A stretch of DNA of 64,000 nucleotides from Sphingobium sp. Ant17 (GTDB lineage Bacteria; Pseudomonadota; Alphaproteobacteria; Sphingomonadales; Sphingomonadaceae): positions 1 to 64,000 of the forward strand of contig NZ_JEMV01000017.1 of the NCBI RefSeq assembly GCF_000588875.1, in the 5' to 3' direction. A program made the position numbers and the translations under genes. Below are positions 5,068-62,325 of the stretch, one piece after another. The notes below the pieces were generated by a model, which saw only the letters and a program-made list of their open reading frames with translations, ran no database searches and was not told the DNA's origin. The number at the start of each line of letters is the position of its first letter. Within the stretch, counting starts at the first letter, position 1.

Positions 5068-5867
5068 ATGACCCGCTCCATGCTGACGAAAACCCTGACG
5101 CGCATCGGCGCGGCCACCACCCCGGTCCTGCTCGCTGCCGTTCTGCTTACGGGCTGCTCGACATCGAAGAACAAGGCCGACACGCAATATGTCGCCCGCG
5201 ACGTATCGACGCTGTACAATAGCGGCAAGGACCGGCTCGATCGCGGCCAGTATAAGCTCGCCGCCGCGTTGTTCGATGAGGTCGAGCGCCAGCATCCCTA
5301 TTCCCCCTGGGCGCGCCGGGCGCAGCTCATGTCGCGTTCAGCTATTATATGAACACCGATTATGCCGAATCCATCTCCGCTTCGCAGCGCTTCCTGGCGA
5401 TCCACACCGGCAATAAAGACGCCCCTTACGCTTATTATCTGATCGCGCTTTGCTATTATGAGCAGATTGCCGACGTCACCCGCGACCAGAAGATCACGCA
5501 GCAGGCGTTGGCGTCGCTCGGCGAACTGATCCGCCGCTATCCCGACACCCGCTACGCCGCCGATGCGCGGTTGAAGGTCGATCTGGTGAACGACCATCTG
5601 GCGGGCAAGGAAATGGAAGTCGGCCGCTTCTATCAGCGCCGTGGCCAATGGATCGCCGCCACGCTGCGCTTCCGCACCGTGGTCGACAAATATCAGACCA
5701 CCACGCACACGCCCGAAGCGCTGGAGCGGCTGGTCGAATCCTATCTCTCGCTGGGCGTCCCCGCCGAAGCGCAAAAGGCCGCCGCCGTGCTGGGTGCCAA
5801 CTATCCCGGTTCCGAATGGTATGAACGGTCCTACAAGCTGATGCGGGAACATGGCGGCAAGGCGTAA
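5068..5867 (+). pseudogene. bamD: Outer membrane assembly lipoprotein BamD, broken by a one-base deletion
   Basis: BamD is the essential lipoprotein partner of BamA in outer-membrane protein insertion. The N-terminal part (from ATG 5068 or 5080) has a lipoprotein signal with lipobox LLTGC followed by TPR sequence up to SPWARRAQLMS. The frame then shifts, and the rest of the protein (MNTDYAESISASQRF to the C-terminus) continues in the -1 frame. Adding one base near 5333, for example restoring tcGGcg, gives QLMSAFSYYMNTDY and an intact protein of about 266 residues, a normal BamD length. Because the gene is essential, a sequencing deletion is more likely than a true pseudogene. recN follows, as in many proteobacteria. 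Confidence 0.9.
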
Positions 5868-5876
5868 GAATTAAGC

Positions 5877-5998
5877 CCCTCCCTTCCAAGGGAGGGTTGG
5901 GGTGGGTCGCGACCCGCAGGGGCGCGTCGAACCTCGCCGTTGCAGGCGCCGCTGGCGCGGCGCACCCACCCCTGACCCCTCCCTTGAAAGGAGGGGGG
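5877..5998. repeat. Palindromic extragenic repeat pair (CTCCC...GGGAG type)
   Basis: Two arms face each other: one beginning CCCCTCCCTTCCAAGGGAGG and running on to GGGGTGGGT (5877-5909), the other its near reverse complement (5966-5998). Each arm is itself a hairpin. Copies of the same family occur at 47443-47525 and 56331-56365. The element fills the bamD-recN gap and probably also acts as a terminator or mRNA stabiliser. Confidence 0.75.
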
Positions 5999-6008
5999 AG
6001 TAATCGCG

Positions 6009-7673
6009 CTGCTAACCGCCCTATCCATTCGCAATGTCGTGCTGATCGAAGCGCTGGACCTGGAGTTCGGCGCTGGCCTGTCCGTGCTGACCGGCGAAAC
6101 CGGTGCGGGCAAATCGATCCTGCTCGATTCGCTGGGGCTGGCGCTGGGCGCGCGCGCCGATAGCGGCCTTGTCCGCAATGGCGAAGCGCAGGCCAGCGTC
6201 ATCGCGACCTTCGATCCGCCGACCGGCGACCATCGCGCCGCCGCGCTGCTGGTCGACAATGGCGTGGAGATGGAACCGGGCGAACCGCTCATCATCCGCC
6301 GCATGGTCAAGGCCGATGGCGGCAGCCGCGCTTTCGTCAACGACCAGCCCTGCTCGGCGGCGTTGCTGCGCGAACTGGGCGGATCGCTGGTCGAAATTCA
6401 CGGCCAGCATGATGATCGCGGCTTGCTCAACGCGCGCGGCCATCGCGCCTTGCTCGACGCCTATGGCCGCTGCGATACCGGCGCGGTCGGCACGGCGCAC
6501 AGCGCTTGGCGCAAGGCCGCTGCGGCGCTTGCCGAGGCCCGTGCCACGGTCGACACCGCCGCGCGCGACCGCGACTATCTGACCCATGCCGTCGAAGAAT
6601 TGCGCAACTTCGCCCCCGAACCCGGCGAGGAGGCGACGCTCGCCGAAGAACGCGCGACGATGCAGAAGGGCGCGCGCCTGACCGACGATCTGTCCACCAT
6701 CAGCGATTGCCTGACCGGCTCCGACGGCGGCCTCGCGCAATTGCGCCAAGCCGCCCGGCGGCTCGACCGGATCGCGGGCGAGGAACCGCTGCTGACCGCC
6801 GTACTCGAAGCGCTCGACCGCGCCGTGGTGGAAGCGGGCGAGGCGGAGGATCGCTTAGCCGAAGCCGCCGAAGCGCTCAGCTTCGATCCGGCCCGGCTCG
6901 ACAGCATCGAAACCCGCCTGTTCGACCTGCGCGGCCTCGCCCGCAAGCATCAGGTGCAGCCCGATGACCTGGCCGGCCTATGCGAAGAAATGGCGGCAAG
7001 GCTGGCCGCGATCGAAGGCGGCGAAGAGCATATCGCGGCGCTGGAAGCGGAAGTCGCGACCAAGGCCGCTGCCTATCGGGCGTCAGCGCAGGCACTGTCG
7101 GGCGAGCGCCAACTGGCTGCCGGTCGCCTTGATGCAGCGGTGGCAGGCGAACTTGCGCCGTTGAAACTTGACGCCGCCCGCTTCCGCACCGTGGTCGCGC
7201 CACTGGACGAAGGGCAATGGACCGCGCAGGGCATGGACCGGGTCGAGTTCGAGATTTCGACCAACCCCGGCGCGCCCTTCGCCCCGCTGACCAAGATCGC
7301 CTCGGGTGGCGAACTCTCCCGTTTCATCCTCGCGCTCAAGGTCGCTCTGGCGGAGCAGGGCGGGGCGGATACGCTGATCTTCGACGAAATCGACCGGGGC
7401 GTCGGCGGCGCGGTGGCATCGGCGATCGGCGAACGGCTCGCGCGTCTGGCGCACAGCAACCAGATCCTGGTCGTCACCCACAGCCCGCAGGTCGCGGCGC
7501 GCGGGGCGGATCATATGCTGATCGCCAAATCCAGCGACGGCACCGTCACCCGCACCGGTGTCCACGCGCTGGACGACCAGGAACGCCGCGAAGAAATCGC
7601 CCGGATGCTCTCCGGCGCAGAAATCACCGCCGAAGCCCGCGCCCAGGCGGATAGGCTGCTCGAAACGCTGTAG
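6009..7673 (+). CDS. recN: DNA repair protein RecN
   Basis: RecN is an SMC-like ATPase that acts in double-strand-break repair. Walker A is GETGAGKS near the N-terminus, a coiled-coil middle follows, and the C-terminal half has the ABC signature LTKIASGGELSRF and Walker B DTLIFDEIDRGVGG. The conserved first beta-strand (LTALSIRNVVLIEALDLEF) lies upstream of the GTG at 6039, and the only plausible initiator before it is CTG at 6009, eight bases after GGAG. I therefore choose the unusual CTG start (554 residues); the GTG at 6039 would give 544 residues and lose that strand. Its ribosome site sits in the edge of the upstream repeat. Confidence 0.9.
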   Translation: MLTALSIRNVVLIEALDLEFGAGLSVLTGETGAGKSILLDSLGLALGARADSGLVRNGEAQASVIATFDPPTGDHRAAALLVDNGVEMEPGEPLIIRRMVKADGGSRAFVNDQPCSAALLRELGGSLVEIHGQHDDRGLLNARGHRALLDAYGRCDTGAVGTAHSAWRKAAAALAEARATVDTAARDRDYLTHAVEELRNFAPEPGEEATLAEERATMQKGARLTDDLSTISDCLTGSDGGLAQLRQAARRLDRIAGEEPLLTAVLEALDRAVVEAGEAEDRLAEAAEALSFDPARLDSIETRLFDLRGLARKHQVQPDDLAGLCEEMAARLAAIEGGEEHIAALEAEVATKAAAYRASAQALSGERQLAAGRLDAAVAGELAPLKLDAARFRTVVAPLDEGQWTAQGMDRVEFEISTNPGAPFAPLTKIASGGELSRFILALKVALAEQGGADTLIFDEIDRGVGGAVASAIGERLARLAHSNQILVVTHSPQVAARGADHMLIAKSSDGTVTRTGVHALDDQERREEIARMLSGAEITAEARAQADRLLETL

Positions 7674-7680
7674 GAGCAGA

Positions 7681-8361
7681 TTAAAGCCGCGCGCCCCGAT
7701 GGAAATGGCCGTCACGCAGGAAATGCACGACTTGATCAACCACCGGACGGGTGTAGATCATCGCCGTATGCGCGACGGGCAAGATCAAGTGATCAGCCTG
7801 TCCAGCCAGATGGGTGGCGGCGACGCTGACCTTGCCATCATTGGCTGCGCGGAACACAAGGCCGGGAAGCCAGGCCTGCATCGGCCTGTCACCGGCAATG
7901 ATACCCAAAGGATAATCGACCGTGCCAAAGGCCTGTTCGACGGCGGCCTGCCGCCGGGTGCGCAGCGCCTCTCCTGCGCGGTGGAGGATCGGACCATGAA
8001 GGCGCAGGCGATAGAGGAGATCGGCCATTTCGCTGCCGCCATTGGGTGTCCCTAACATCACGACGCGACCAAGATTGGGCGGGCGATGGCGCGCCAGATA
8101 AGCGCGTAGGACAAGGCCGCCCATCGAGTGGCCGACGCAATGGATCGGGCCAGCTTGCGCCTTGGCGAAGGGCGCAATCCTCGCATGGATATGCTCAACG
8201 ATGCGATCGATCGGCCAACGCCACGAGGGATAGCCGATATTGCACACGACAAAACCAGCGCCACGGAGACGACGTGCCAGCAGTGCAGTCTGGACCGGAT
8301 GGCCACCAAAGCCGTGCAGCAATATGATCGCTTCAGGCGGGGACGCGGCAGGCTGATTCAT
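7681..8361 (-). CDS. Alpha/beta hydrolase, lipase/PGAP1-like
   Basis: This is a 226-residue serine hydrolase. The oxyanion region is IILLHGFGGHP, the nucleophile elbow GHSMGG, and the sequence MLGTPNGGSEMADLL after it resembles triacylglycerol lipase and PGAP1-like esterases that act on hydrophobic substrates. A C-terminal His is likely in LPVAHTAMIY. There is no signal peptide, so it is cytosolic. It is convergent with recN (seven bases between stops) and lies downstream of clpA on the same strand, but a terminator separates the two. The substrate cannot be told from sequence. Confidence 0.8.
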   Translation of the reverse strand: MNQPAASPPEAIILLHGFGGHPVQTALLARRLRGAGFVVCNIGYPSWRWPIDRIVEHIHARIAPFAKAQAGPIHCVGHSMGGLVLRAYLARHRPPNLGRVVMLGTPNGGSEMADLLYRLRLHGPILHRAGEALRTRRQAAVEQAFGTVDYPLGIIAGDRPMQAWLPGLVFRAANDGKVSVAATHLAGQADHLILPVAHTAMIYTRPVVDQVVHFLRDGHFHRGARL

Positions 8362-8414
8362 AGGAGGCCGATCATGATGGTGAAACCCGGCTATTGCCGG
8401 TGGCGGACGGCGTA

Positions 8415-8447
8415 AGAAAAAGGGCGACCCTCGCAGGCCGCCCTTTC
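8415..8447 (-). terminator. Rho-independent terminator of clpA
   Basis: On the minus strand a GC-rich stem (AAGGGCGGCC pairing with GGTCGCCCTT) about 25 bases after the clpA stop is followed by TTTTTCTT. This would end the clpA transcript before the lipase-like gene. Confidence 0.65.
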
Positions 8448-8467
8448 CGTCGCACAGCTAAGCGCCG

Positions 8468-10786
<2,319 letters not shown>

Positions 10787-10942
10787 GTTTACTCTACTCC
10801 TGACCCCGATAAGGGGTGATGGTGAACCCTATGTCGGCATTGCTCGACGGCGGATCAAGGCACAGCGCCCGATCGCCGGAATTGCCAGACTGCCCATGCC
10901 CGAATTTGCCCTTGATCGGGGCGCTTGGGGCTGGACGGGGGG

Positions 10943-11140
10943 TCATCGTCTGAATAGCGCCTCGGCACTTGCCTTATGGTTAACGGCGCTTTGCATTTTC
11001 GACCGGGTGCGCGCGATTTCCGTTTCGAGGGCGGCTATGCGGGCTTCCAGTTCGGCCACGGACAAGGGCGCCAGATCCTGTTGGATAAGCCGGGCCAGAA
11101 GATCATCGCCCTTGCGGGGGAGGTCGTCGTCCATGTCCAT
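10943..11140 (-). CDS. DUF1192 family small protein
   Basis: This is a 65-residue acidic protein that begins MDMDDDLPRKGDDLLARL and continues with a helical stretch LSVAELEARIAALETEIAR typical of DUF1192, a small alphaproteobacterial family of unknown function. A longer frame extends upstream, but the 45 extra residues are Pro/Arg/Cys-rich and non-conserved; ATG 11140 or 11134 fits the family start. It is divergent from the quinone oxidoreductase gene, with a palindromic double promoter between them. Confidence 0.8.
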   Translation of the reverse strand: MDMDDDLPRKGDDLLARLIQQDLAPLSVAELEARIAALETEIARTRSKMQSAVNHKASAEALFRR

Positions 11141-11147
11141 GCAGGCC

Positions 11148-11180: not shown

Positions 11181-11241
11181 GGCCTATGCGGGATTGCGCG
11201 ATTTTGGCGCATCGCAGCATAGTCGGGTTTTGGGGGAATGC

Positions 11242-12261: not shown

Positions 12262-12272
12262 GGGGCTGAACG

Positions 12273-13007: not shown

Positions 13008-13092
13008 CATTTCCGTCATATTCGGTGCGGACTTGTAACAATGGCGCGCTAAGGACTCGGTCCCAAGGATACACGTCTTTGGGGATCGTATC

Positions 13093-19672: not shown

Positions 19673-20487
19673 ATGAATGATGCTCTCCTGACCCGCATTG
19701 CCGACGCGCTCGACCGGCTTGCGCCGCCCGCCAGGCGTCCGCTGATCTCTCCGCATATCCGGCCTATATGTGGGACGGCCATGCCATCCAGGCGGTTGAG
19801 GCCTTCGCCCCGGTCGATTATGCCCTGCTGACCGGCATCGACGCGCAAAAAAGCGCCTTGCTGGAAAATAGCCGCCGCCTGGCGGCTGGCCATGCCGCGC
19901 ATGACGCCCTGCTCTGGGGCGCACGGGGCACGGGCAAGTCGGCCGTGGTGGCGTCGGTCGTGGGCGAACTGCAAAAAGAAGGGCAGGGCATCGCCCTGCT
20001 GCAATGCGCGACCGATGCGCTGGCCACGCTTCCTGCGCTCTTTTCACGGCTGCGTGAGACCGACCGGCCCTTCATCCTGTTCCTCGATGATCTCGGCTTC
20101 GACGAGGGCGTGGGTGATGCCCGGACCCTGCGTTCGCTTCTTCAAGGCGGCACGGCGGCGCGGCCTGCCCATGTCCGCCTCTATGTCACCTCCAACCGCC
20201 GCCACATCGTCCCCCGGCACCTGTCGGAACAGGATGACCCGATCAATCCGCGCGACGTGGTGGACGACCGGATGGCGCTGTCCGACCGTTTCGGGCTCAG
20301 CCTTGGCTTCCACGCGCTCGACCAGGATGCCTATGTCGCGATCGTGCGCGGTTATGCGGCCAAGCTGGGCGTGGCCTTCGACCCGCTGGAAGCGATCCAA
20401 TGGTCGACCCAGCGCGGCAGCCGGTCAGGCCGCGTCGCCTGGCAATATGTGGTCGAACTGGCGGGGCGGCACGGGCTGACGGTCTGA
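19673..20487 (+). pseudogene. DUF815 family ATPase, frameshifted near its N-terminus
   Basis: This is an AAA-like ATPase of the DUF815 family (about 271 residues once repaired). The first 20 codons from ATG 19673 (MNDALLTRIADALDRLAPPA) match the family N-terminus, but the rest lies in the -1 frame from ASADLSAYPAYMWDG onward. Adding one base near 19730-19733, for instance a C in CCgCC to give GCCCAG, joins them. Walker A is LLWGARGTGKSAVV and Walker B FILFLDDLGFDEG; TSNRRHIVPRHL is a further signature. A start at the internal ATG 19768 would give 239 residues but loses conserved sequence. It is convergent with a sugar dehydrogenase gene. Confidence 0.8.
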
Positions 20488-24341: not shown

Positions 24342-24708
24342 CGCGCGCGGTTCCTGCGATGAAATGATGAAAGGCGTCAAGGAATTCCGCCCCTTTGGGG
24401 GTCCGGGTGATGAAAATATTGCGCCGATCGGCCACATCGCGCTCGCGACGGAGATAACCCAGCGCCGATAATTTGTTCAGTGCGCGGGTAATGACGGGCT
24501 TGGACACGTGCAGCGCTTCCGCAAGACCGCGCACCGTATGCGGCCCGGCCCCGATATAGACGGTCATCATCAACGCCATCTGACGGTTGGTGAGGTCGGG
24601 TTTCCCCGACCGGACATAATCCACCAGCGTCCGCATCCAGTGGCGAAGCGGCTGAACCCCGGGGCGTTCAATGGCGGCAACCTGATCTTGTGCTGTGAGG
24701 ACGTTCAT
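24301..24708 (-). CDS. MarR family transcriptional regulator
   Basis: This is a 135-residue winged-helix regulator. The recognition region is HTVRGLAEALHVSKPVITRALNKL and the wing YLRRERDVADRRNIFITRTPKG. Helical dimerisation segments flank it. It is the first gene of a minus-strand run (marR, NlpC/P60, argC) with overlapping ends, so it may control this run or act elsewhere. No ligand can be inferred. Confidence 0.88.
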   Translation of the reverse strand: MNVLTAQDQVAAIERPGVQPLRHWMRTLVDYVRSGKPDLTNRQMALMMTVYIGAGPHTVRGLAEALHVSKPVITRALNKLSALGYLRRERDVADRRNIFITRTPKGAEFLDAFHHFIAGTARDDRHDNSKAERTA

Positions 24709-24767
24709 GCGGGCTTAACGCATGATGCCCAATCCGGTTGCGTAACGTCCAGGCGGAATGTGACGCT

Positions 24768-26164
24768 TTACGTATCCGGCCAGTAACGCTGCTGCAGCAG
24801 GCGGAACACCGCGCGCATCCCCAGCGCTTCGCCGCCTTTCGGGCGGCCGGGCTTGGCCGATGGCCGCCAGGCGAAGGTATCGAGATGCAGCCATGGCGTA
24901 TCGTCGGGCACGAAACGCTGCAGGAACAAAGCAGCGGTGATCGCGCCGGCAAATCCGCCTTCGCCCGCATTGTTGATGTCGGCGATGTCGGACTTGAGCA
25001 TATCGGCATAGCCTCCCACAAAGGCAGCCGCCAGGTCGGATCGTCCACATCCGTCCCGGCCTGGGCCAGATCGGTCGCCAGTCCGTCGTCATTGGCGAAC
25101 AGGGCAGGCAGGTCCGGCCCGACCGCGACTCGCGCCGCGCCGGTCAGCGTCGCGAAATCGACGATCAGTTCCGGCTTCTCCTCCGCCGCGCGGGCCAGCG
25201 CGTCGCCCAGCACCAGCCGCCCTTCGGCATCGGTATTGCCGATCTCGACCGTCAGCCCCTTGCGGCTGCGCAATATGTCGCCGGGGCGGAAGGCGTTGCC
25301 GCTGATCGCATTTTCTGCCGCCGGGATCAGCAGGTGCAGCCGCACCGGCAGCCGCGCCGCCATGATAAGCTGCGCCAGCGCCAGCGCATGCGCCGCGCCG
25401 CCCATATCCTTCTTCATCAGGCGCATGCCCGACGACGGCTTGATGTCCAGCCCACCGCTGTCGAAGCTGATGCCCTTGCCGACGATGGCGATGCGCGGCG
25501 CAGCCGGATCGCCCCAGTTGAGTTCGATGAGGCGCGGGGCGAAGTGCCGGTCGGCGGCCCGCCCGACCGCGTGGATCATCGGATAGCCCTGCGCCAGAGC
25601 ATCGCCGCGCGTGACCACGACCGTCGCGCCAAAGGGTTTGGCGACGGTTTCGGTTGCCGCTTCCAGTTCGGCCGGCCCCATATCGGCGGCGGGCGTGTTC
25701 ACCAGATCCCGCACCAGCGCGACCGCCCGCGCCAGATCGATCGCCGGCGCGATCCGCGCGACGTCGCTGGTCAGCAACTGGCGCGACCCCACCACATTAT
25801 CCTCGCGGCGGTAGCGGTCGAACCGATGCTGCGCCAGCAGCCAGCCTAGCATCGCCGCACCGGGCGATCCCTCGGCCAGGCGATAGCGCCCTTCGGGCAG
25901 CGTCTCGGCCAGGCGCGCCAGGCACCAGGGGCCAAGCGCCCCCTTATCCGCTACCCCGGCAACGACCATCCAGTCGCCCTCGCGCTCGGCTGGCAGGATC
26001 GCCGTCTCATGCGGCTTGGCCCGGAATTTCTGTGCCGCCAGCAGCGCGCGGGTCTGGTCCGGGCGGGTCGCGAGCCAAGCGTCCAGCGCCTTGGCCTCGA
26101 CCAGGTGGATGATATGGGCAGGCTGGCCAGTGTCGGCTTTGATGCAATCGGCAAAATCGGTCAT
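24768..26164 (-). pseudogene. Leucyl aminopeptidase (M17), broken by a one-base deletion
   Basis: This M17 metallo-aminopeptidase removes N-terminal residues from peptides. The catalytic region is intact: IAIVGKGISFDSGGLDIKPS, MKKDMGGAAHAL, GNTDAEGRLVLGDAL. The frame breaks at about 25012 after RLPLWE, where GAGGCT should read GAGGGCT; adding one G gives LWEGYADMLKSDIADINNAG and a normal C-terminus ending LLQQRYWPDT, about 465 residues. Start is ATG 26164 or 26173. The missing base lies in a G run, so it is probably a sequencing deletion. Confidence 0.9.
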
Positions 26165-26308
26165 GGCAGGCATGTAAGGGAAAGGCGCGCGTCAAGGGAA
26201 GGCGAAACATTCATCGCCCGCCCCGCACGTCCGGCCCTTTCTTCCTTTGCACTATCGCGCGCGTGGGCCTAGCCTTTGGCGCATAACCATAGCCAAAGGA
26301 GAGTGACG

Positions 26309-27437: not shown

Positions 27438-28804
27438 CTAAACCGGCACGCCATAAAGATCATGCTCATCGGCATCCTCGATCAGCACGCCGAAAATATC
27501 GCCCGCCTTCCGCCCTTCGCCGACATCGCGCAAAAACACATTGCCGTCGATTTCCGGCGCATCGGCCTGTGACCGCGCGGTGGCACCGATGCTGCCATCC
27601 TCCTCGTCCGGCTCGCCGACTTCGTCAATTATCACCGGCAGCACGCGCCCGACCTTCGCCGCCAGCTTGGCGGCGCTGATCGCGGCGGTCTTTGCATGAT
27701 CCGCTGATAGCGTTCTTCCTTGACCGCTTCGGGCACCGCGCCGGGCAGGGCGTTGGCCGCAGCCCCTTCGACCGGTTCGAAGCGGAACGCGCCGACACGG
27801 TCCAGCTGCGCCTCATCAAGCCAGTCGAGCAGATATTGGAAATCCGCCTCCGTCTCGCCGGGGAAGCCCACGACGAAGCTCGACCGGATCGTGATGTCGG
27901 GGCAGATCGCGCGCCATTTATGGATGCGATCCAGCACCTTGGCTTCATTGGCGGGGCGCTTCATCGCTTTCAGCACCGACGGCGATGCATGCTGGAACGG
28001 GATATCGAGATAAGGCGTCAGCAGCCCTTGCGCCATCAGCGGAATGACCTGATCGACATGGGGATAGGGATAGACATAGTGCAGCCGCACCCAGGGGGCG
28101 TTGCCGTCCGCGTCCCGCAACTGGCCGAGTTCGCGCGCCATGTCGGTCATGTGTGCGCGCACCTCGCGGCCCTTCCACTGGCGCGGCTCATGCCTTGTAT
28201 CGACGCCATAGGCCGACGTATCCTGGCTGATGACCAGCAATTCCTTCGTCCCCGCCGACACCAGCTTTTCCGCCTCGCGCAGCACCGCGTCGATGCGCCG
28301 CGATACCAGATCGCCCCGGATCGAGGGGATGATGCAGAAGGAGCAGCGATGGTTGCAGCCTTCGGAAATCTTCAAATAGCTGTAATGGCGCGGCGTCAGT
28401 TTGAGGCCACCTTCGGGGACCAGGTCGACAAAGGCGTTGGGGATCGGCGGCGATGCATCATGCACCGCATTGACCACCTGCTCATATTGATGCGCGCCGG
28501 TGACGGCCAGCACTTGCGGGAATTTCGCGCGGATCAAGTCCGCTTCGTCGCCCATGCATCCCGTGACGATGACGCGGCCATTTTCGGCCATCGCCTCGCC
28601 GATCGCCTCCAGCGATTCTTCCTTCGCCGAATCGAGAAAGCCGCAGGTGTTGACCAGCACGACGTCGGCCCCGGCATAATCGGCGGACATCTGATAGCCG
28701 TCCGACCGCAGCTTGGTGAGGATGCGTTCGGAGTCCACCAGGTTTTTGGGACAGCCGAGCGAAACCATGCCGATCTTCGGCGCGTCAGGAAATTTGGTTG
28801 CCAT
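27438..28804 (-). pseudogene. rimO: Ribosomal protein S12 methylthiotransferase RimO, broken by a one-base deletion
   Basis: RimO is a radical-SAM enzyme that methylthiolates Asp-88 of ribosomal protein S12. The N-terminal UPF0004 domain starts [19 protein letters not shown] with Cys residues at VNTCGF and VTGCMG. The radical-SAM cluster motif is [16 protein letters not shown]. The frame breaks at about 27692 (CAAAGACC should be CAAAAGACC); adding one A restores [23 protein letters not shown] and the TRAM domain to the stop, total about 455 residues, normal for RimO. The loss is in an A run. Start chosen at ATG 28804. Confidence 0.92.
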
Positions 28805-28865
28805 GATGGTCGCGCACATAGGGATTTGTGCGCGCAATGTCACGCGCCGCCGTCAGCGTGCCGGG

Positions 28866-30999: not shown

Positions 31000-31754
31000 T
31001 CAGGCGGGGAACGCTGCTGCCGTTACCGCCATGGCGCTGTCCTGCGTCAGGTCATAGTGCAACGGCGTGACCGTGATATAGCCCTCCGCTATCGCCGCCA
31101 GGTCGCTGCCTTCGGGCACCGCATCGCTGCTGCCCAGCGAGAACCAGTAGTAGCGATAGCCGCGCGGGTCGGTGCCCTCGACGATCTTGGTGCGATCGAC
31201 ATCATGAAAGCCCTGCCGCACCACGCGAATGCCCTTGACCGCGTCGGGGTCAAATTGACGTTGAACAACATGCGCGGCGTCACGGGCAGCGCGATCAGCG
31301 GGCGCAGCACCTTCTCGCCCCAGGCTTCCGCCGCGGCGAAGGGCACATCGTCGCCCATCCCCGATCGGGCATAGACCTGGCTCAGCGCGATGGACCTTAT
31401 GCCCGAAATCGTCCCCTCCATCGCGGCGGCGACCGTGCCCGAATAGGTCACGTCCTCGGCCAGATTGGCCCCGCGATTGACGCCCGACAGGATCAGGTCC
31501 GGCTTGGCGTCCTTCATCAGATGCCCCACCGCCATCATCACCGCATCGGTCGGGGTGCCGGTGACGCTATAATGCTGTTCGCCATGTTTGCGGATGCGCA
31601 GCGGCCGGGTCAGCGTCAGGCTATGCCCCGCACCCGACTGCTCCTCGCTCGGCGCGACGATCCAGATATCGTCGGACAATGTCCGCGCGATCGCCTCCAA
31701 CACCTTGAGGCCCGGGGCATGCACGCCATCATCATTGGTCAACAGGATACGCAT
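31000..31754 (-). pseudogene. surE: 5'/3'-nucleotidase SurE, broken by a one-base deletion
   Basis: SurE is a metal-dependent nucleotidase that acts on nucleoside monophosphates. The N-terminus MRILLTNDDGVHAPGLKVL and SGVNRGANLAEDVTYSGTV are diagnostic. The frame breaks at about 31252, where AATTTGACC should contain one more T; repair joins LFNVNFDPDAVKGIRVVRQG with the C-terminal part (HDVDRTKIVEGTDPRGYRYY). The restored protein is about 251 residues, normal for SurE. The start is ATG 31754. The missing base is in a T run. Confidence 0.92.
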
Positions 31755-36889: not shown

Positions 36890-37368
36890 ATGCCCAGTGC
36901 AATCTCTCTTGATCGCGGCCTGCATCGGGGTCTGGTGGACGGCCTCTATCTCGAAGCCATGCTGATGGCTGACGAGGCACGAACCTATTTCGATGGTGAC
37001 GGCGTCAAGGAAGACGGGTTGGACGATCCGCTTCGCCGGGTCGCCTTCGCTTGCGAATCGCTCAAGGTCACGACGCGGCTGATGCACGTCATCGCCTGGC
37101 TGCTCAGCCAGCGCGCATGGCAGCGGGGCGAGATTGGCGATGTCGATCTGTCGGATGAGAAATATCGGCTGGGCCACGCCAGTCAGAGCGATCCCTTGCT
37201 CATCGCCGGCTTCCCCTTCGCCGCACGCGCGCTGATCGACGCCAGCCATGAACTTTATGACCGGGTGGCCCGATTGCAGGATCGGCTGGATCGGATGACC
37301 ATCTCCCTCGCCATGCCGGTGGCAAACCCGCGCGCGCCTTGCAGGATCGGCTCCACACCGCCTTTTGA
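36890..37368 (+). pseudogene. DUF1465 family protein, apparently frameshifted near its C-terminus
   Basis: This is an alphaproteobacterial DUF1465 protein of unknown function: LVDGLYLEAMLMADEARTYFD, ACESLKVTTRLMHVIAWLLSQRA, and HELYDRVARLQDRLDR. After this the read frame runs 65 codons through Pro/Arg-rich sequence into the tamA start. Adding one G at about 37293-37295 (CGGAT to CGGGAT) instead gives a short tail ending ARALQDRLHTAF with a stop at 37366, 159 residues in all, which is more natural. Hence I read a one-base deletion in a G run. The unrepaired stop is at 37495. Confidence 0.65.
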
Positions 37369-42500: not shown

Positions 42501-43733
42501 CGGCTGACCGGGGTGGAGATTGTCGACATGGGTGGGCCGGTCAATGTGTCGGCGGACATGCGTGGCACGCTCGGCGATCCCCGCATCACCGGCACTTTCG
42601 CTACCGATAACAGCACGATCAACAGCCCGGTCACCGGCATGCGGCTGGCCAATGTCAAGGCGCGCGGGCGCTTCTCCGGCGCGCAACTCGTCATTTCCAG
42701 CTTCACCGGCGCGTCGCAAAATGGCGGCTCGGTCACCGGTACCGGCCGCTTCACCTTCAACGGCATAGCGGGCGTCGGCATGGACCTGGCGATGCAGGCG
42801 GACAATGCCGCGCTGCTGGAACGCGACGATATCGCCGCGACCGTCACCGGTCCCATCACCCTGCGATCCGACGGCACGGGCGGGACGATCGGCGGCGATG
42901 TCATCCTCAACAAAAGCCGCTTCACGCTGGGCCGTGCCGCCGCCGTCGCTGCCATCCCCGAATTGCGCGTCGTTGAAATCAACCGGCGCGGGGAAGAGAT
43001 CGACACGCCGCGCACCAACGTCCCCTGGGCGCTGGCGATCAAGGCGCGCGCGCGCAACCGCCTGACCGTCACCGGCCTTGGCCTCGACAGCGAATGGCGC
43101 GCCGATCTCGACCTTGGCGGCACCGTCACCAATCCCGCCATCGCCGGGCGCGCCGAATTGGTGCGCGGGAATTATGAATTTGCCGGCCGCCGTTTTGAAC
43201 TGCGCGAAGGCCGCATCCAGTTCGATGGCAAGACGCCCATCAACCCGACACTCGACATTGATGCCGTCGCCGATGTCAGCGACCTGACCGCCACCATCCA
43301 TGTCGGCGGCACCGGCCTCAAGCCCGACATCAGCTTCAACAGCATTCCCGCGCTGCCGCAGGACGAACTGCTTTCGCGCATCCTGTTCGGCACATCGATC
43401 ACCAACCTGTCCGCGCCCGAAGCGCTGCAACTCGCCTCGGCGGTCGGCTCGCTGCAGGGCGGTGGCGGGCTCGACCCGATCAACGCCGTGCGCAAGGCGG
43501 CGGGGCTGGACCGGCTGCGCATCATCGCCGCCGATCCGACCCAGGGGCAGGGGACGTCGATCGCGGCGGGCAAATATCTCACCCGCAAAACCTATGTCGA
43601 GTTGATCACCGACGGGCAGGGCTATTCCGCCACCCGTATCGAATATCAGGTCACGCGCTGGCTCTCGCTATTGGGGGCCATCTCGACGCTCGGCCGCCAG
43701 AGCGCCAACGTCCGCGTGTCGCGGGATTACTAA
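39558..43733 (+). CDS. tamB: Translocation and assembly module protein TamB
   Basis: This is a 1391-residue AsmA-like protein with one N-terminal membrane helix (WVAGLLAAALLIVAGSVAWL, residues about 23-42). A long beta-rich periplasmic groove follows, and a C-terminal DUF490/TamB domain begins near residue 1050 with AIKARARNRLTVTGLGLDSEW and IPALPQDELLSRILFG. It spans the periplasm to TamA and is thought to carry phospholipids or client barrels. Length is normal. It is directly coupled to tamA and followed three bases later by sdaA. Confidence 0.93.
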   Translation: MTDETPAAPTIRRRAWDGRWQRWVAGLLAAALLIVAGSVAWLDTGAGHRFLVSRIATIKSRSGLQISVDRIDGSIYRKAVLHNLVLSDPNGRFFDAPRVELEWWPLAWLSNRLDIDRLVIPRATLHKLPKLNPTQRQGPILPAFDIRLMQFSVGQLAIAPGVTGRAQTATIAGDADIRGGRAVIDLAARTLDGRDALSIALDSRPDDDRFRLDVTVNAPQGGVLATMAGLTQDGTLRIGGKGSWTQWDGRLAATLDAAPAADFVLAARSGAYSARGTVEGSAIAGGSLIQRLSSPRLTVRANGTLVDRVIDGTASLRSAAIDLSADGAIDLRNNALDNMRLDLTLARPEALLKTMRGRDVVAKIRLDGPLSQLGYEYLLTARELTFDKARISDVRAEGKGRTAGSGPTLIPLRLRAGRLDGQGDLVEGIVRNFALDGVLQLNGQQIVSNPMDLRSDKLRGKLTVLADLKTGRYDMGLDGQIVGLAIRGFGVVDVTSKLRAMPRADGGFGLSGSAAARVRRLDNDFLRTLGGGLPTARSDLALRPDGTLALTNMRLAAPLLTLAGNGVRFRDGTLHLEGKGQHDQYGPLTLTLDGNIERPTIDLMLARPMDALGLRDVHAHLIPDANGYSYTAEGGSTLGPFTGRGVILLPQGGQAVVRVANLAVSGVTASGDIRPVTGGLDGQLAVSGPVTGYVGFKPVDDIQQVQLKLTANGASFDGPTIITVRRGTLDATILLDPSGTTLKATAQARGLRVGGVLVGRFAANADLVDGRGTIRGSLSGQRGRLFELQGEAQVDADRIRITAGGTIDKRPIRLTRAALLTRTDDGWRLSPATISYAGGSLQLGGELGATSNHVEARMDKLPLGLLDIAYDNLGLGGIATGSLSYAQPRGGLPTGTAELRVRGLSRSGLSLSSRPVDVGVNATLGADRLATRMVFVADGKTIGRGQALLSPLGRTGGLVERLNAAPLFAQLRYAGAADTLWRLTGVEIVDMGGPVNVSADMRGTLGDPRITGTFATDNSTINSPVTGMRLANVKARGRFSGAQLVISSFTGASQNGGSVTGTGRFTFNGIAGVGMDLAMQADNAALLERDDIAATVTGPITLRSDGTGGTIGGDVILNKSRFTLGRAAAVAAIPELRVVEINRRGEEIDTPRTNVPWALAIKARARNRLTVTGLGLDSEWRADLDLGGTVTNPAIAGRAELVRGNYEFAGRRFELREGRIQFDGKTPINPTLDIDAVADVSDLTATIHVGGTGLKPDISFNSIPALPQDELLSRILFGTSITNLSAPEALQLASAVGSLQGGGGLDPINAVRKAAGLDRLRIIAADPTQGQGTSIAAGKYLTRKTYVELITDGQGYSATRIEYQVTRWLSLLGAISTLGRQSANVRVSRDY

Positions 43734-47400: not shown

Positions 47401-47442
47401 CCTTACAACGAATGAACAGCCGAGAATGGCCGCTTTAGTCAT

Positions 47443-47525
47443 CCTCCCCTGGCAGGGGAGGTGGCAGGGCGAAGCCCTGACGGAGGGGTGTCCCGCTCTC
47501 GATAGGGTGACACCCCTCCACCACT
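47443..47525. repeat. Palindromic extragenic repeat (CTCCCC...GGGGAG type)
   Basis: CCTCCCCTGGCAGGGGAGGT starts a composite of hairpins that ends GACACCCCTCCACCAC. It is related to the repeats at 5877 and 56331 and lies between convergent genes. Confidence 0.7.
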
Positions 47526-47566: not shown

Positions 47567-48240
47567 CTACAGTGTCGCTTCGATCGCGCGCGCCGCCATA
47601 TCGGGGTCTTCGGCCAGGCTGATCGGCCGCCCCACCACCAATATGGACGCGCCGCGATCCAACGCCTGACGCGGGGTCACGGCGCGTTTCTGGTCGCCCA
47701 TCGCGCCGCCAGCGGGCCGCACGCCCGGCACCACGAAAAAGCGTCGCGCCACGCGGCCTTGGCCATCGCGACTTCCTCGCCCGAACAGACGATGCCGTCC
47801 AGCCCGGCGCTCTGCGCCAGATCGGCGAGCCGCCGCACCTGATCCTCGGCCTTCCCGCCGACACCGATATCGAGCAGGTCGCCATCGTCCAGGCTGGTCA
47901 GCACGGTCACCGCCACCACCTTGGTATTGACGCCCGCCGCCGCCTTGGCGTCCTCCAGCATCGCACGGCCCCCCGCCGCATGGACGGTCAGGATCGCCGG
48001 TTCCAGCAGGTGCAGCGCCTGCACCGCCTTGGCGACCGTATTGGGAATGTCGTGCAGCTTGAGGTCGAGGAAGATCGGCAGGTCGAACTTCATCATTTCC
48101 AGCACGCCATGATGGCCATGGGCGCAGAAAAATTCGAGGCCCAGTTTCAGCCCGCCGACATGATGGCGCACCTGCCCGGCCAGATGCTGCGCTTTGGCGA
48201 GATCGGGCGTGTCGATGGCGACATAGATGGGGCTGCTCAT
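47567..48240 (-). pseudogene. pyrF: Orotidine 5'-phosphate decarboxylase PyrF, broken by a one-base deletion
   Basis: PyrF makes UMP in the last step of pyrimidine synthesis. The N-terminal part is intact with [14 protein letters not shown] and the catalytic [13 protein letters not shown]. The frame breaks at about 47742 (GACGCTTTTT, one base short); repair joins AKAAWRDGF to [18 protein letters not shown] and [10 protein letters not shown], giving about 224 residues, normal. As the enzyme is needed for growth without uracil, a sequencing deletion is likely. It overlaps the lapA stop by four bases. Confidence 0.92.
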
Positions 48241-54173: not shown

Positions 54174-54181
54174 CCGGCACA

Positions 54182-56311: not shown

Positions 56312-56330
56312 TAGCAAGCTGCCCATAAAA

Positions 56331-56365
56331 CTCCTCCCCCTTAAGGGGGAGGTTGGGGTGGGGGT
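56331..56365. repeat. Palindromic extragenic repeat (CTCCCCCTTAAGGGGGAG)
   Basis: CTCCTCCCCCTTAAGGGGGA with a GGTTGGGGTGGGGG tail lies between convergent purB and lacI. It is the same family as the repeat at 5877. Confidence 0.75.
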
Positions 56366-56460
56366 GTACTGCCGCCAGCATTGACGCGCAACTTCGCCTC
56401 TGTCTCCCGCTGGGGAGATCGTCGCACGTTGGTATAAGACTTCGCCGCAAACGCGCCTTA

Positions 56461-57530
56461 TTACCGCACACCCAACCTGGGCCGCATCCTCGGCGCGGCA
56501 TCCGACTGCCGCCGCACCAGCTTATGCGCCAGCACCAGATGCTCGGACGCATGTCCGCGCCGCGCCGCCCTTTCAGCAACCGCACCAACACCTCGACGGC
56601 CGCGCGCGACATGGCGCTGATCGGCTGGCGGATGGTGGTCAGCTCGGGCCAGATGGTGGTGGCAAGCGAGGTGTCATCGAACCCGCACACCGTCAGGTCG
56701 CCCGGCACGTCAAGGCCACTACGGTGCGCGATCGCGACGGTCGCCGCCGCCATATCGTCATTGCTGGCGAAGATGGCGGTAGGCGGATCGAGCAGCGACA
56801 ATATCTGTTCGGCCGCGTCCAGCCCCGACCGGTAGGTGAAATAGCCTTGCGCGATCAGTTCGTCCAACACCGGCAGGTTCGCTTCGCTCAGCGCGGCGAG
56901 ATAGCCTTCAAACCGCTTGCCGCTGGCGGTCTGGTTGGGGTTGCCCTTGATGAAACCGATGCGCGAATGGCCCAGCGTGATCAGGTGGCGCGTCATTTCA
57001 TAGGCTGCCTGCCAGTCATCGATGCTGACCGCCGCCAGGTCGCCGGGCGCTCGTCCCGTCGCAACCGCTACGGCCGGGATGTTGGCGGCCTGCAATGCCT
57101 CGACCATTTCCTCCAGATCGCATAGCGGCGGCGGCAGGATGACGCCGTTGATCCGCCCGCGCAGCAGATGATCGACGACCGCCTTCACCGATGTCTGTTC
57201 GTCCCATTTCTCCACGACCAGGTCGACGCCGCTGCGGCTCGCCTGGTCCAGGCTACCGACCAGAAATTCGCTCAGATAAGAGGAGGACGGGTTGCTGTAG
57301 AGCAGGCCGATCCGCAGTTCATCGCCCCCCGCCAGGCTGCGTGCGGCGGCGCTCGGCGCATAGTTAAGCGCCAGGATGGCGGCATCGACCTTAGCCTTGG
57401 TCGCGGGCCGCACCACCTGCTCGCCATTGATGACCCGCGACACCGTCATGGGCGATACCCCGGCGTGGCGCGCCACGTCGTTGATCGTGGGGGCGTTGCG
57501 CTGACGGCGGGAGGATCGGGTGTCGGTCAA
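56461..57530 (-). pseudogene. LacI family transcriptional repressor, frameshifted near its C-terminus
   Basis: The N-terminal helix-turn-helix is TINDVARHAGVSPMTVSRVI and the hinge ALNYAPSAAARSLAG. A periplasmic-binding-like sugar domain follows (VCGFDDTSLATTIWPELTTI). At about 56544 one base is missing (CGTCCGAGCAT); repair restores LVLAHKLVRRQSDAAP and a stop at 56461, giving about 356 residues. Unrepaired, the frame runs on to 56265. The start is TTG 57530. It is the best candidate repressor for the two operators at 53789 and 59823, with a xylose or xylan-derived inducer. Confidence 0.88.
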
Positions 57531-57606
57531 TGCGGGGTGCTTTCAGGGCCGGTAAGGATGTCGCCGAAGTGCTAACGACATCGCCCCGCCAGATTAAAGC
57601 GAAAAA

Positions 57607-59751
57607 TCACGGATTGCCGGGCGCATAGGGGAATTTGCGCATTTTATAGGCCTCCAGGCTCTCTGGCGGCGGCGCAGCCCCGGCGGGCAGGGGGCGCTTG
57701 GCGATCGACTGGAAATAGGCGATGCTCGCATCGCGCCACCATTGGGCCTCCTTTTGCTGGATATCGAGGAAGGTCTGCGTCTGCGCAAAGCGTTCCGCAT
57801 CGATCATCGGCCGCAGCCCCTCCCACGTCGCGCGCATCCCTGCGACATAGGCGACGCCCCGGTCATAGCGATGGACCATCCCGTCCCACAGCGTTTTGCC
57901 CGACGCCAGCCGATAGTCCCAGGGCAGATGATGGAACCACAGCAAGTCGCGCTCCGGCGTCGTGCGCGGATCGGCCAGCCGCTTGGCGATCGGCGGCGCA
58001 TATTGGGCGATGGCGTTGCTGCCGGTCTTGGTCCGGTCAAAGCCGATGCCGGTCGCATCCGCCTTGTGATAATAGACCGGGTTCCATTCGGGCCGCGCCA
58101 ATTCCGATACCCAGGGGGCAGGGCCATAATGATGACCCGTGTTCATGACATGGGCGAGGCCCAGCGGCGTCATATAGTCCACCGCCGCCTCGCGCGATCC
58201 CATCATCATCGCGACCATCGGCTCGACCACCGCCTTGTCGGGCGTGAAGGTCAGCGCCGCCCATTCGCGCGCCACCGCATCGGCTGTCAGGTCGGGGTTC
58301 CAGGCCATCCGCCCGAACGCATACCAGTCCGCCTGGTTGAAGATCGACCCGCTCCAGTCGCGATCCGTGCCGATATTGGCAACGCCCGCAATGCCCGTCA
58401 GCCTATGCCCGTCCAGCGACCCGTCGATCACCTTGGCAACCGTCGATCCCTTGCCCTTGGCGAACGTATCGCTTTTCAGCGTCTCTTCGAACAACGGACC
58501 CAAATAGGTCAGATGCGTCGATTGCCCCAGATATTCCTTGGTGATCTGGAACTCCATCATCAACGGCGTCTTGGGCATCGCCCCGAACAGCGGATGAAAG
58601 GGCTCGCGCGGCTGAAAGTCGATCGCGCCATTCTTCACCTGCACGATGACATTGTCGGCGAATTGCCCATCGAGCGGCTTGAAGTCGGCATAGGCCTGTT
58701 TGGCGCGATCGTCGGGATCGTCATGGGCATAGACGAAGGCGCGCCACATCACGATCCCGCCATGCGGCTTGATCGCAGCGGCCAGCATGTTCGCGCCATC
58801 GGCATGGGTGCGGTTATAATCCTGCGGACCCGGCTGTCCCTCGCTATTGGCCTTGACCAGGAAGCCGCCAAAATCGGGGATCGCCGCGTAAACCTCGTCG
58901 GCCTTGGCCTTCCACCAGGCGGCAACGGTCGGATCGAGCGGATCGGCGGTCTTGAGCCCATCCAACTCCATAGGCGCGGTCCATTTGACCGATAGGTAAA
59001 CCTTGATCCCATAGGGCCGAAACACATTGGCCAGCGCCGCCGCCTTGGCGATATAGGGCGCGGTCAGGCTGTCCGACTTGGCATTCACATTGTTGAGGAC
59101 GGTGCCGTTGATGCCGATCGACGCATTGGCGCGGGCATAGTCGGTATAGCGCGGCCCCTTCCAGTCGGGCAGCCGCCACCAGTCCCAGATCGACGACCCC
59201 GAATAGCCCCGTTCCACCGTGCCATCCAGATTGTCCCAATGGTTGAGCAGGCGCAGGTCGATGCGCGGCGCGCTGCGCACATTGATGGCGTCAAGCGCCG
59301 CGCCTGACTGTGCCAGCCGCAGCCAGCGGAACGCGCCATGCAGCAACCCGCTGTCGCTGTTCGCGGCGATCAGCGTGACCGGCTTGCCCTCGACCCGAAT
59401 CGATCGGATCGCATAGCCTTCGCGGCCAAGGTCATTCGTTTTGACCGGGAGGGCAGGCGCGGTCTTTGGCGTCGCCAGCCACAGGGCTCCGGGCTGGATC
59501 GTATCCGACAGGGCCGGTGAAGTCCCGGTCATGCCGCCAACGCCGCGCTGCAACTCGTCGCGTATGGCCTGCATCGTCGCGCTGTCGCCCGGCGCCATGA
59601 TCACGTTCGCATGCGCCGCAATCCGCGCCGCCGCCGCACCGTCTGCCGGCCGGTAGCGCAGCCACAGATCATAGCCATCCTCGGCCCGCGCCACAGGCGT
59701 CAGGCTCATCATGGCCATGGCCAATATCCAGCAAATCAGGCGCGCGATCAT
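57607..59751 (-). CDS. Alpha-glucuronidase, GH67
   Basis: This is a 714-residue GH67 enzyme that removes (4-O-methyl-)glucuronic acid from xylo-oligosaccharides. The N-terminus is a signal peptide (LICWILAMAMMSLTPVARA), so it acts in the periplasm or outside. GLNHWDNLDGTVERGY-like (LLNHWDNLDGTVERGYSG) and the catalytic-acid region VKANSEGQPGPQDYNRTHAD are diagnostic. Length fits the family. It is divergent from the GH3 gene, sharing the operator between them. Confidence 0.93.
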   Translation of the reverse strand: MIARLICWILAMAMMSLTPVARAEDGYDLWLRYRPADGAAAARIAAHANVIMAPGDSATMQAIRDELQRGVGGMTGTSPALSDTIQPGALWLATPKTAPALPVKTNDLGREGYAIRSIRVEGKPVTLIAANSDSGLLHGAFRWLRLAQSGAALDAINVRSAPRIDLRLLNHWDNLDGTVERGYSGSSIWDWWRLPDWKGPRYTDYARANASIGINGTVLNNVNAKSDSLTAPYIAKAAALANVFRPYGIKVYLSVKWTAPMELDGLKTADPLDPTVAAWWKAKADEVYAAIPDFGGFLVKANSEGQPGPQDYNRTHADGANMLAAAIKPHGGIVMWRAFVYAHDDPDDRAKQAYADFKPLDGQFADNVIVQVKNGAIDFQPREPFHPLFGAMPKTPLMMEFQITKEYLGQSTHLTYLGPLFEETLKSDTFAKGKGSTVAKVIDGSLDGHRLTGIAGVANIGTDRDWSGSIFNQADWYAFGRMAWNPDLTADAVAREWAALTFTPDKAVVEPMVAMMMGSREAAVDYMTPLGLAHVMNTGHHYGPAPWVSELARPEWNPVYYHKADATGIGFDRTKTGSNAIAQYAPPIAKRLADPRTTPERDLLWFHHLPWDYRLASGKTLWDGMVHRYDRGVAYVAGMRATWEGLRPMIDAERFAQTQTFLDIQQKEAQWWRDASIAYFQSIAKRPLPAGAAPPPESLEAYKMRKFPYAPGNP

Positions 59752-59822
59752 CCGTCCCTCTCCATCGCGTCGGCTTCGTCAGCCCGCTATCGGGCATTGA
59801 CAAGCGCGACTTGTCTTACCAA

Positions 59823-59836
59823 TGGTAACGCTATCA
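59823..59836 (+). promoter_or_regulatory. LacI-type operator between the glucuronidase and GH3 genes
   Basis: TGGTAACGCTATCA is an imperfect palindrome and differs by one base from the core in the xylX operator. It lies 72 bases upstream of the glucuronidase start and about 120 upstream of GH3, with a TTGACA hexamer at 59797-59802, so one repressor could control both directions. Confidence 0.65.
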
Positions 59837-59956
59837 GTTCTAATCGGGCAAGCAGAAACGTGATAGCTCGGCAAAATTGGAGAGGCACGTCATGAACCAC
59901 CCCCGTAAGATATCGATCCGGGCGGCGATTTCCATCGTCCTGATGGTGCAACAGCC

Positions 59957-62325
59957 ATGACCTTTGCTCGACGCCAGGCGCTTGGCCTGCTCGCTTCCAC
60001 CTCGCTCCTGTCGGCGACTCCGGCCATGGCCGCCACAAAGGGCGGCCCGCTCTACAAGGACGCAACCGCGCCGATCGACCTGCGCGTGCGCGACCTGCTC
60101 GGCCGCATGACGCTGGAGGAAAAAGTCGGCCAGATCATCGCGCTCTGGGCGACCAAGGCCGACATCATGGATGGCCTGACCTTCTCCCCCGCCAAGGCGA
60201 GCAAAGCCTATCCGGCGAGCTTTGGCCAGATCACCCGCCCGTCCGACAAGCGCGGCGCGCCTGATGGGTCGCAACAGGCGGGCGGCGTCGGCGCGCGCTG
60301 GCGCACCCCGGCGGACACGGTGGCCTTCATCACCGCGATCCAGAAATGGGCGATCGAGGAAACCCGACTCGGCATCCCCGTGCTGTTCCATGAGGAATCG
60401 CTGCATGGCTATATGGCGACCGAGGCCACCAGCTTCCCGATGGCGATCGGCCTGGCGGGCAGTTTCGACCGCCAGCTAATGCACGACATCCAATCCGTCA
60501 CCGCCCGCGAAGTCCGCGCCCGTGGCGTGCATCTCGCTCTGTCCCCGGTGGTCGACATCGCCCGCGATCCGCGCTGGGGCCGCATCGAGGAAACCTTTGG
60601 CGAAGATCCCTATCTGTGCGGCGAAATGGGCGTCGCCGCCGTGCTGGGCCTGCAGGGCGAAAGCAAGCAGCTTGGCCCGGACAAGGTGATGGCGACGCTC
60701 AAACATATGACCGGCCACGGCCAACCCGAAAGCGGCCAGAATATCGCGCCCGCGTCGATCTCGGAGCGCGAATTGCGCGAGAATTTCTTTCCGCCCTTCC
60801 GCGAAGTCGTCCGCCGCACCGGCATCGCCGCCGTCATGCCCAGCTATAATGAAATCGATGGCGTCCCCAGTCACCAGAGCACATGGCTGCTCGGCGACAT
60901 CTTGCGCGGCGAATGGCATTTCGACGGCGCGGTGGTCAGCGATTATGGCGCGGTCCACGAACTCGACACCATCCATCATGTTCAGCCCGACCCGGAAGCA
61001 TCGGCCCGAGCCGCGTTGCGCGCCGGGGTGGATTGCGAACTGCCCGATGGCCTGACCTATCGGACGCTGGTGAGCCAAGTGCGCGCCGGAAAGGTGCCGG
61101 TCGAAGCGGTGGATATGGCCGTGCGCCGCATGTTGACGCTCAAATTCCGCGCGGGCCTGTTCGAAAATCCCTGGCCGCGTCAGGATTATGCCACGCTGAC
61201 CGGCAACGCCGAAGCGCGCGCCCTCGCTTTGAAGGCGGCGCACAAGTCGATCGCGCTGCTCAAGAATGACGGCACGCTGCCCCTGACGGCGGGCGCGCAC
61301 AAGCGCGTCGCGGTGATCGGTCCCAATGCCGCCGTCGCGCGCCTTGGCGGCTATTCCTCTATCCCGCGTCAGGAAGTGTCGCTGCTCGAAGGCATAGAGG
61401 CCAAGCTCAAGGGCAAGGCGCAGGTGTCCATGCCCAGGGCGTCTTCATCACCCAGAGCGAGGATCGGTCGGCCGACGACGTGCTGCTCGCTGATCCCGCG
61501 AAGAACCGCGCCTTGATCGCCCAGGCGGTCGAGGTCGCGAGCAGCGCCGATATCATCCTCCTCGCGATCGGCGACACCGAACAGACCAGCCGCGAAGGCT
61601 TTGCCAAGAACCATCTGGGCGATCGCACCAGCCTCGATCTGCTGGGCGAACAGAATGACCTGTTCGTGGCGATGAAGGCGACCGGCAAGCCCGTCATCGT
61701 CTGCGCCATCAACGGTCGCCCGCCCAGCTATCCCACCGTCGTGGAGGGCGCGAACGCGCTGATCGAATGCTGGTATCCGGGGCAGGAGGGCGGCACGGCC
61801 ATGGCCGACATTCTGTTCGGCGACGTCAATCCCGGCGCAAAGCTGCCCGTCACTGTTGTGCGGAATGAAGGGCAGATCCCGCTCTTCTACAACCGCAAGC
61901 CATCCACCGGTCGCGGCTATTTGTTCGCGAAAAATACACCGCTCTTTCCGTTCGGCTTTGGGCTTAGCTACACCCGCTTCACCTTCGGCAAACCCCGCCT
62001 GTCCGCCCCGCGTATCGGCATAGGCGGACAGGTGACGGTCGAGGTCGATGTCCGCAATGTGGGCGACAGGGCCGGGGACGAAGTCGTCCAGCTCTATGTT
62101 CGCGATCAGGTCGCCAGCGTCACCCGCCCGATCAAGGAATTGAAAGGGTTCGAGCGCGTCACCCTCGCGCCGGGCGAGAGCCGGACCGTGCGCCTGACGC
62201 TTGGCCCCGACGCCTTTGCGCTGTGGAATCTCGACATGGACGAAGTGGTCGAACCCGGCCTGTTCGACATCATGGTCGGGCCGGACAGCGAAAATCTTCA
62301 GACCGTCACCCTTGAAATCCTTTGA
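59957..62325 (+). pseudogene. Exported GH3 beta-xylosidase/beta-glucosidase, broken by a one-base deletion
   Basis: The enzyme has a twin-arginine-like signal (FARRQALGLLAS, cleavage near ATPAMA). The N-terminal GH3 barrel includes FGEDPYLCGEMGVA, ATLKHMTGHGQPESG and the nucleophile Asp in AVVSDYGAVHEL. At about 61425 the frame shifts (CAGGTGTCC, one base short); repair joins KAQVVHAQGVF to ITQSEDRSADDVLLAD and restores the C-terminal domains including PFGFGLSYT and the fibronectin-like end. Total about 789 residues, typical of GH3. In this locus it probably trims xylo-oligosaccharides to xylose. Confidence 0.9.

What the first reader, a model, noticed from the sequence alone, without database searches (positions are those of the whole stretch)
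5068..62325. Nine genes share the same defect: exactly one missing base each
bamD, DUF815, pepA, rimO, surE, DUF1465, pyrF, lacI and GH3 each read correctly in two frames offset by -1. In every case adding one base gives a normal-length family member, and the missing base mostly fits a short homopolymer (GG, GGG, AAAA, TTTT, CCC). No gene needs an insertion. Nine losses and no gains, in essential and dispensable genes alike, is the pattern of an unpolished assembly. Anyone counting pseudogenes here would be misled.
Basis: partly seen in the sequence, partly recalled or inferred. Interest (0 to 1): 0.75.

Follow-up and report, generated by a model that had tools for sequence, protein, structure and literature searches.

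The report
Ion Torrent base-dropout frameshifts
Nine genes in this stretch look broken because the draft genome, most likely an Antarctic soil Sphingobium sequenced only on an Ion Torrent machine, dropped bases; the genes are probably intact in the living bacterium, so this is ordinary sequencing error.

Summary
The breaks are in the record and almost surely not in the organism. All nine genes change frame by -1 (mod 3) against Sphingobium orthologues. "Exactly one base" is too strong: surE lacks 10 bases against 30 of 30 aligned loci, lacI nets 4, DUF815 is unresolved at base level, and DUF1465 breaks near 37,300-37,330, not 37,294.

The fault is genome-wide. In sampled contigs against sister genome G032, 32 frame switches hit 31 of 195 testable genes; 30 are -1, 2 are +1. 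Of 29 one-base losses, 22 lie in runs of two or more (43% expected, p = 0.0004). Codons after the breaks keep the third-position bias of intact genes (0.778 against 0.766), so they are not decaying. Over a shared region, 43 of 45 named loci show no switch; the window shows four in 15.9 kb.

G000 has 199 contigs and 5,236,637 bases. The draft of Sphingobium sp. Ant17 has 199 contigs and 5,238,558 bp, assembled from Ion Torrent PGM reads (PMC3983292, whole text). Verdict: base-dropout artefact, platform very probably identified. Interest is low except as a database warning.

The parts
5068..5867 (+). bamD (YfiO family lipoprotein), frame break at 5334
   Evidence: G032 orthologue 1-89 then 90-266 in another frame, net -1, 97-98% identity on both sides; family from the G032 orthologue; no second copy in G000
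19673..20487 (+). DUF815 ATPase-like gene, frame break at 19729-19738
   Evidence: G032 and G040 orthologues change frame after residue 19, net -1; 28 of 29 loci net 1
24774..26164 (-). pepA (peptidase M17), frame break at 25013
   Evidence: four of four relatives, net -1; 42 of 42 loci net 1. The 24668-26173 ORF of 501 aa is an out-of-frame tail, not an intact gene
27438..28819 (-). rimO-type radical SAM/TRAM gene, frame break at 27689-27692
   Evidence: four of four relatives, net -1; 46 of 46 loci net 1
31003..31754 (-). surE, frame break at 31251-31254 by a 10-base loss
   Evidence: d = -10 against G032, G008 and G044; 30 of 30 loci net 10
36890..37368 (+). DUF1465 gene, frame break at about 37300-37330; the true stop is bypassed and the ORF runs on to 37495
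   Evidence: C-terminal tail of G008, G044, G040 and G032 orthologues matches in another frame at 37327-37365; window piece matches PF07323
47567..48240 (-). pyrF (OMP decarboxylase), frame break at 47737-47740
   Evidence: three of three relatives tested, net -1; 3 of 3 loci net 1; no second copy in G000
56464..57533 (-). LacI-family regulator, frame break at 56541-56571
   Evidence: G008, G040 and G044, net -4; 3 of 3 loci net 4
59957..62325 (+). glycoside hydrolase family 3 gene, frame break at 61426
   Evidence: two G040 paralogues change frame there, net -1

Best explanation
Sequencing artefact. The genome is very probably the Sphingobium sp. Ant17 draft, made from Ion Torrent PGM reads alone. 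The instrument adds one nucleotide type at a time and reads run length from signal size, so it tends to call a run one base short. With no second technology to correct them, such losses stayed in the consensus at about 0.17 per kb of coding sequence (roughly 780 genome-wide by extrapolation) and each splits a gene. Shown here: the frame breaks, their sign, their spread, their link to short runs, and the lack of decay. Inferred: that G000 is Ant17, and that the bases are present in the living cell. The 10-base surE loss may be a longer Ion Torrent dropout or a true deletion.
For: 32 switches in 31 of 195 testable genes (of 316 G032 proteins), 30 of them -1 mod 3, over every contig tested against G032: window 5 in 40 genes, C1 9/58, C2 9/50, C5 4/18, C20 1/9, C66 4/20. 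Three further -1 breaks in the rest of contig C17. The reverse test gave 6 frame switches on G032; five mirror a listed G000 break and the sixth sits in the last codons of a gene that in G000 runs past its stop. 22 of 29 one-base losses in runs of two or more, 43% expected, p = 0.0004. Third-position share of substitutions 0.778 downstream, 0.718 upstream, 0.766 in intact genes. Median aa identity 94.7% broken, 95.9% intact, p = 0.24. No second bamD or pyrF copy, although bamD is essential in well-studied bacteria (recalled). Contig number equal and length within 0.04% of the Ant17 Ion Torrent draft. Deletions are 77% of Ion Torrent against Illumina allele differences in Listeria, mean deletion length 38 bp (PMC12046094, passages). 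Isolated single Ns in some contigs and contig ends in short dispersed repeats (C66, C2) suggest a short-read draft.
Against: Losses sit mostly in runs of two or three; 0 of 329 runs of five or more were hit and long runs are not clearly depleted against G032, while the Listeria study found a mean run length of 5.5, mostly adenine. A steep rise with run length is therefore not shown. Two switches are +1. surE lacks 10 bases. The Ant17 match is not exact: the total differs by 1,921 bases, the smallest contig fetched is 1,455 bases although the paper says >1,500, and 441 kb of G000 average 63.5% G+C against 62% stated. No reads were available.
Confidence: 0.96

Rival explanations
1. Real, recent pseudogenes: the strain lost function in many genes by single-base deletions, for instance as a mutator or after relaxed selection.
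For: No reads were checked. A deletion that arose very recently would leave no decay. surE, with 10 bases missing, looks least like a simple undercall.
Against: 31 of 195 genes broken, bamD and pyrF with no second copy. 30 of 32 of one sign, p = 2.5e-7. No relaxed selection after the breaks. Slippage in a mismatch-repair mutator favours long runs (recalled), yet 0 of 329 runs of five or more were hit. 43 of 45 named loci show none over the shared region.
Confidence: 0.03
2. A long-read (PacBio or Nanopore) draft that was never polished, rather than Ion Torrent.
For: Such drafts give the same excess of losses: about 240 erroneous deletions in a PacBio Clostridium autoethanogenum genome (PMC4687164, passages).
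Against: 199 contigs down to 1,455 bases, contig ends lying in repeats of about 50 bases, isolated Ns, and the match to an Ion Torrent draft. In the PacBio case over 90% of errors lay in runs longer than four, unlike here.
Confidence: 0.03
3. Programmed frameshifting or other recoding that rejoins the two frames.
For: All breaks in the window have one sign; the cell must somehow make BamD.
Against: Close relatives carry the genes in one frame. The losses share no motif beyond short runs; the GGC/GCC context is not enriched (14 of 19 against 57%, p = 0.17). About 780 sites would be needed.
Confidence: 0.003

Closest known systems
Ion Torrent homopolymer undercalls in bacterial assemblies (Listeria comparison, PMC12046094, passages read)
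   Same: Losses far outnumber gains; alleles frameshift; also multi-base losses
   Different: There the affected runs average 5.5 bases and are mostly adenine; here mostly G or C runs of two or three in a G+C-rich genome
Uncorrected PacBio draft of Clostridium autoethanogenum (PMC4687164, passages read)
   Same: Bases missing from runs make intact genes look frameshifted, some in genes the organism needs
   Different: Over 90% lay in runs longer than four; another platform
Singleton frame transitions in GeneTack surveys (PMC3711429, passages read)
   Same: Breaks confirmed by homology but lacking in relatives, which that paper expects to be mostly sequencing errors
   Different: Surveyed complete genomes, not one error-rich draft

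Membership tests
Flow-sequencing base-dropout artefact | Excess of losses over gains | tested here: met
   30 of 32 switches are -1 mod 3
Flow-sequencing base-dropout artefact | Losses concentrate in homopolymer runs | tested here: met
   22 of 29 in runs of two or more, 43% expected, p = 0.0004
Flow-sequencing base-dropout artefact | Rate rises with run length | tested here: inconclusive
   For G/C runs 0.8, 6.4, 12.3, 11.2 per 10,000 runs of length 1 to 4; no hit in 329 runs of five or more of any base
Flow-sequencing base-dropout artefact | Genome-wide, regardless of gene function | tested here: met
   All six G000 stretches with orthologues tested against G032, plus the rest of C17; two more stretches (C40, C90) were fetched but not compared, and C10 had almost no counterpart
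Flow-sequencing base-dropout artefact | Source data from a flow-based instrument | tested here: inconclusive
   Contig number and size match the Ant17 Ion Torrent draft; accession not checked
Flow-sequencing base-dropout artefact | Bases present in independent accurate reads | not testable with these tools
   No reads held
Pseudogene | Relaxed selection in or after the break | tested here: not met
   Third-position share 0.778 downstream against 0.766 in intact genes; identity not lower, p = 0.24
Pseudogene | Shared by related strains | tested here: not met
   pepA 42/42, rimO 46/46 and surE 30/30 aligned loci lack the loss
Programmed frameshift | Break conserved among relatives at a slippery motif | tested here: not met
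   Relatives read through in one frame

The most novel reading that the evidence does not exclude
The losses are real in the strain, and a cell with several hundred interrupted genes, bamD among them, lives by rejoining frames at many unrelated sites. No reads were available, so this is not strictly excluded. A milder form: most losses are errors, but the 10-base surE deletion is real.
Probability: 0.003. Interest if true: 0.95.

Novelty: not a real feature. Interest (0 to 1): 0.12.

Why it matters
Roughly one gene in six of the sampled part of this genome appears broken (31 of 195), yet it serves as the held genome of its species. Gene counts, pseudogene counts, pan-genome and core-gene sets, and claims of absent pathways from it would be wrong. 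[quoted passage not shown] split genes may contribute, which I did not test. The 6.19% contamination estimate may also be inflated if a split marker counts twice; that is inference.

Tried and rejected
GGC/GCC-specific error motif: 14 of 19 against 57% expected, p = 0.17, dropped. Depletion of long homopolymers: spectrum close to G032, dropped. Sequence overlaps between contig ends as a sign of a de Bruijn assembler: none exact among 8 sampled ends. A second intact copy: none for bamD or pyrF; the other seven genes were not searched that way. Extra window losses outside called genes (36432, 31762, 45274 against G032) were left uncounted because coding status is unclear. Alignment-paired gains and losses in divergent stretches were not counted as breaks. 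Noncoding one-base differences are even (37 losses, 38 gains), which says little because noncoding alignment is noisy. Contig C10 has almost no counterpart in four relatives. Sphingobium sp. KK22, another Ion Torrent draft, does not fit: 252 contigs, 4.92 Mb (PMC3820777, whole text).

Rows dropped before counts: seven query proteins (over-long or dubious calls, two of them pepA) were removed from the query list, leaving 46. In the frame tests, matches under 60% identity or 60% coverage were dropped (% identity used for selecting queries, 45%).

Full report
What was checked. The window is bases 1-64000 of contig C17 (84,128 bases) of a genome with 199 contigs and 5,236,637 bases, estimated 96.1% complete and 6.2% contaminated. 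Named matches to an intact window protein are almost all Sphingobium (45 loci). The nearest genome held, G032 (contig length equal to that of Sphingobium sp. D43FB), is 89-93% identical over 3.9-46.7 kb of the window. I called genes in G032, G008, G040 and G044 with a script of my own and compared their proteins with the window by tblastn, looking for changes of frame.

The nine genes. Eight of the nine breaks were found automatically and the ninth, DUF1465, by a closer look at its C-terminus. All are -1 modulo 3. No other switch appeared in 53 testable gene clusters covering 52,885 bases. The conjugation genes trbF, trbG, trbI and DUF2274 at the window start are unbroken; the partial trbL gene gave no qualifying match.

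Where the finding is off. DNA alignments to the fetched loci show that surE lacks ten bases (30 of 30), lacI nets four (3 of 3), DUF815 nets one in 28 of 29 but with ambiguous placement, and the others net one: pepA 42 of 42, rimO 46 of 46, pyrF 3 of 3, bamD 1 of 1, GH3 1 of 1. The DUF1465 window in that call was too divergent to read (24 loci, mixed); protein matches put its break near 37,300-37,330.

Genome-wide test. Stretches of five further contigs, and G032 counterparts, were fetched after DNA searches. Of 316 G032 proteins, 195 could be tested; 32 frame switches hit 31 genes; 30 are -1 modulo 3 and 2 are +1. The chance of 30 or more of 32 in one direction is 2.5e-7 two-sided. The rest of contig C17 gave three more, all -1, against G040, G008 or G044. 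In the reverse test, 209 G000 proteins on G032 DNA gave 6 switches; five mirror G000 breaks already listed, and the sixth lies at the very end of a gene whose G000 copy runs past its stop. G032 does have one break of its own in surE.

Controls. Over the window's 18.9-39.9 kb region, with 46 query proteins, the window has 4 switches in 15,928 bases; 45 named loci have 3 in 576,044 bases, 43 of them none. The exceptions are L049 (one, in surE) and L079, S. chungbukense DJ77 (two, both -1). Among the four relatives, G044 also has one break supported by three of three query genomes, and G040 one supported by one query; a few others came from over-long query proteins.

Character of the losses. Of 29 one-base losses seen in DNA, 22 lie in runs of two or more against 43% expected (p = 0.0004); for losses without a nearby substitution, 14 of 18 (p = 0.003). 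By run length, any base: one 7, two 16, three 5, four 1, five or more 0. So short runs dominate simply because they are common, and a steep rise at long runs is not shown.

No decay. Substitutions after the breaks fall on third codon positions in 0.778 of cases, before them 0.718, in intact genes 0.766; broken genes are not significantly less conserved (94.7% against 95.9% median, p = 0.24). The codons at the junction itself are misaligned and were kept apart (0.492).

Source of the data. A library search for Sphingobium drafts made on Ion Torrent returned two papers; I read both in full. Sphingobium sp. Ant17: PGM 318 chip, SeqMan NGen, 199 contigs of >1,500 bp, 5,238,558 bp, >20x, 62% G+C (PMC3983292). 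G000 has the same contig number and 1,921 fewer bases. Small mismatches: the smallest contig fetched is 1,455 bases and 441 kb of G000 average 63.5% G+C. I take this as very probably the same assembly, not as proven. A search for papers with Ant17 together with frameshift or pseudogene terms listed, among its 12 shown of 2,427, only that announcement holding the word Ant17; I saw the listing only.

Mechanism. Ion Torrent reads run length from signal size and tends to undercall; in Listeria 77% of allele differences from Illumina were deletions, with a mean length of 38 bp (PMC12046094, passages). That makes both the one-base losses and the surE loss plausible as errors. Platform undercalling is established knowledge; its action here is inferred, since no reads were available.

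Verdict. It is an artefact, not biology.

Noticed in passing
window 27-3625: Conjugation genes (trbL part, trbF, trbG, trbI, DUF2274) 82-88% identical in DNA to conjugative plasmids of Pseudomonas, Citrobacter and others, directly before the chromosomal genes upstream of bamD; perhaps the end of an integrated element.
   Followed up: partly
L079 (Sphingobium chungbukense DJ77), about 11416 and 13859: Two -1 frame switches in 15 kb, the only named control with more than one; another draft that may be error-rich.
   Followed up: no
L049 / G032 contig C315, about 42889-42943: surE of the sister genome has its own, different frame break, against G008 and G044.
   Followed up: partly
L095 13060-14130; L103: Clusters of isolated single N bases, 20 and 36 runs, absent from most other G000 stretches; perhaps collapsed repeats.
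   Followed up: no
G000 contig C10 (L098): 20 kb with almost no counterpart in four same-genus genomes; accessory element or contamination.
   Followed up: no
window 47441-47490; start of contig C66: A dispersed repeat of about 50 bases with many copies over G000 contigs.
   Followed up: no
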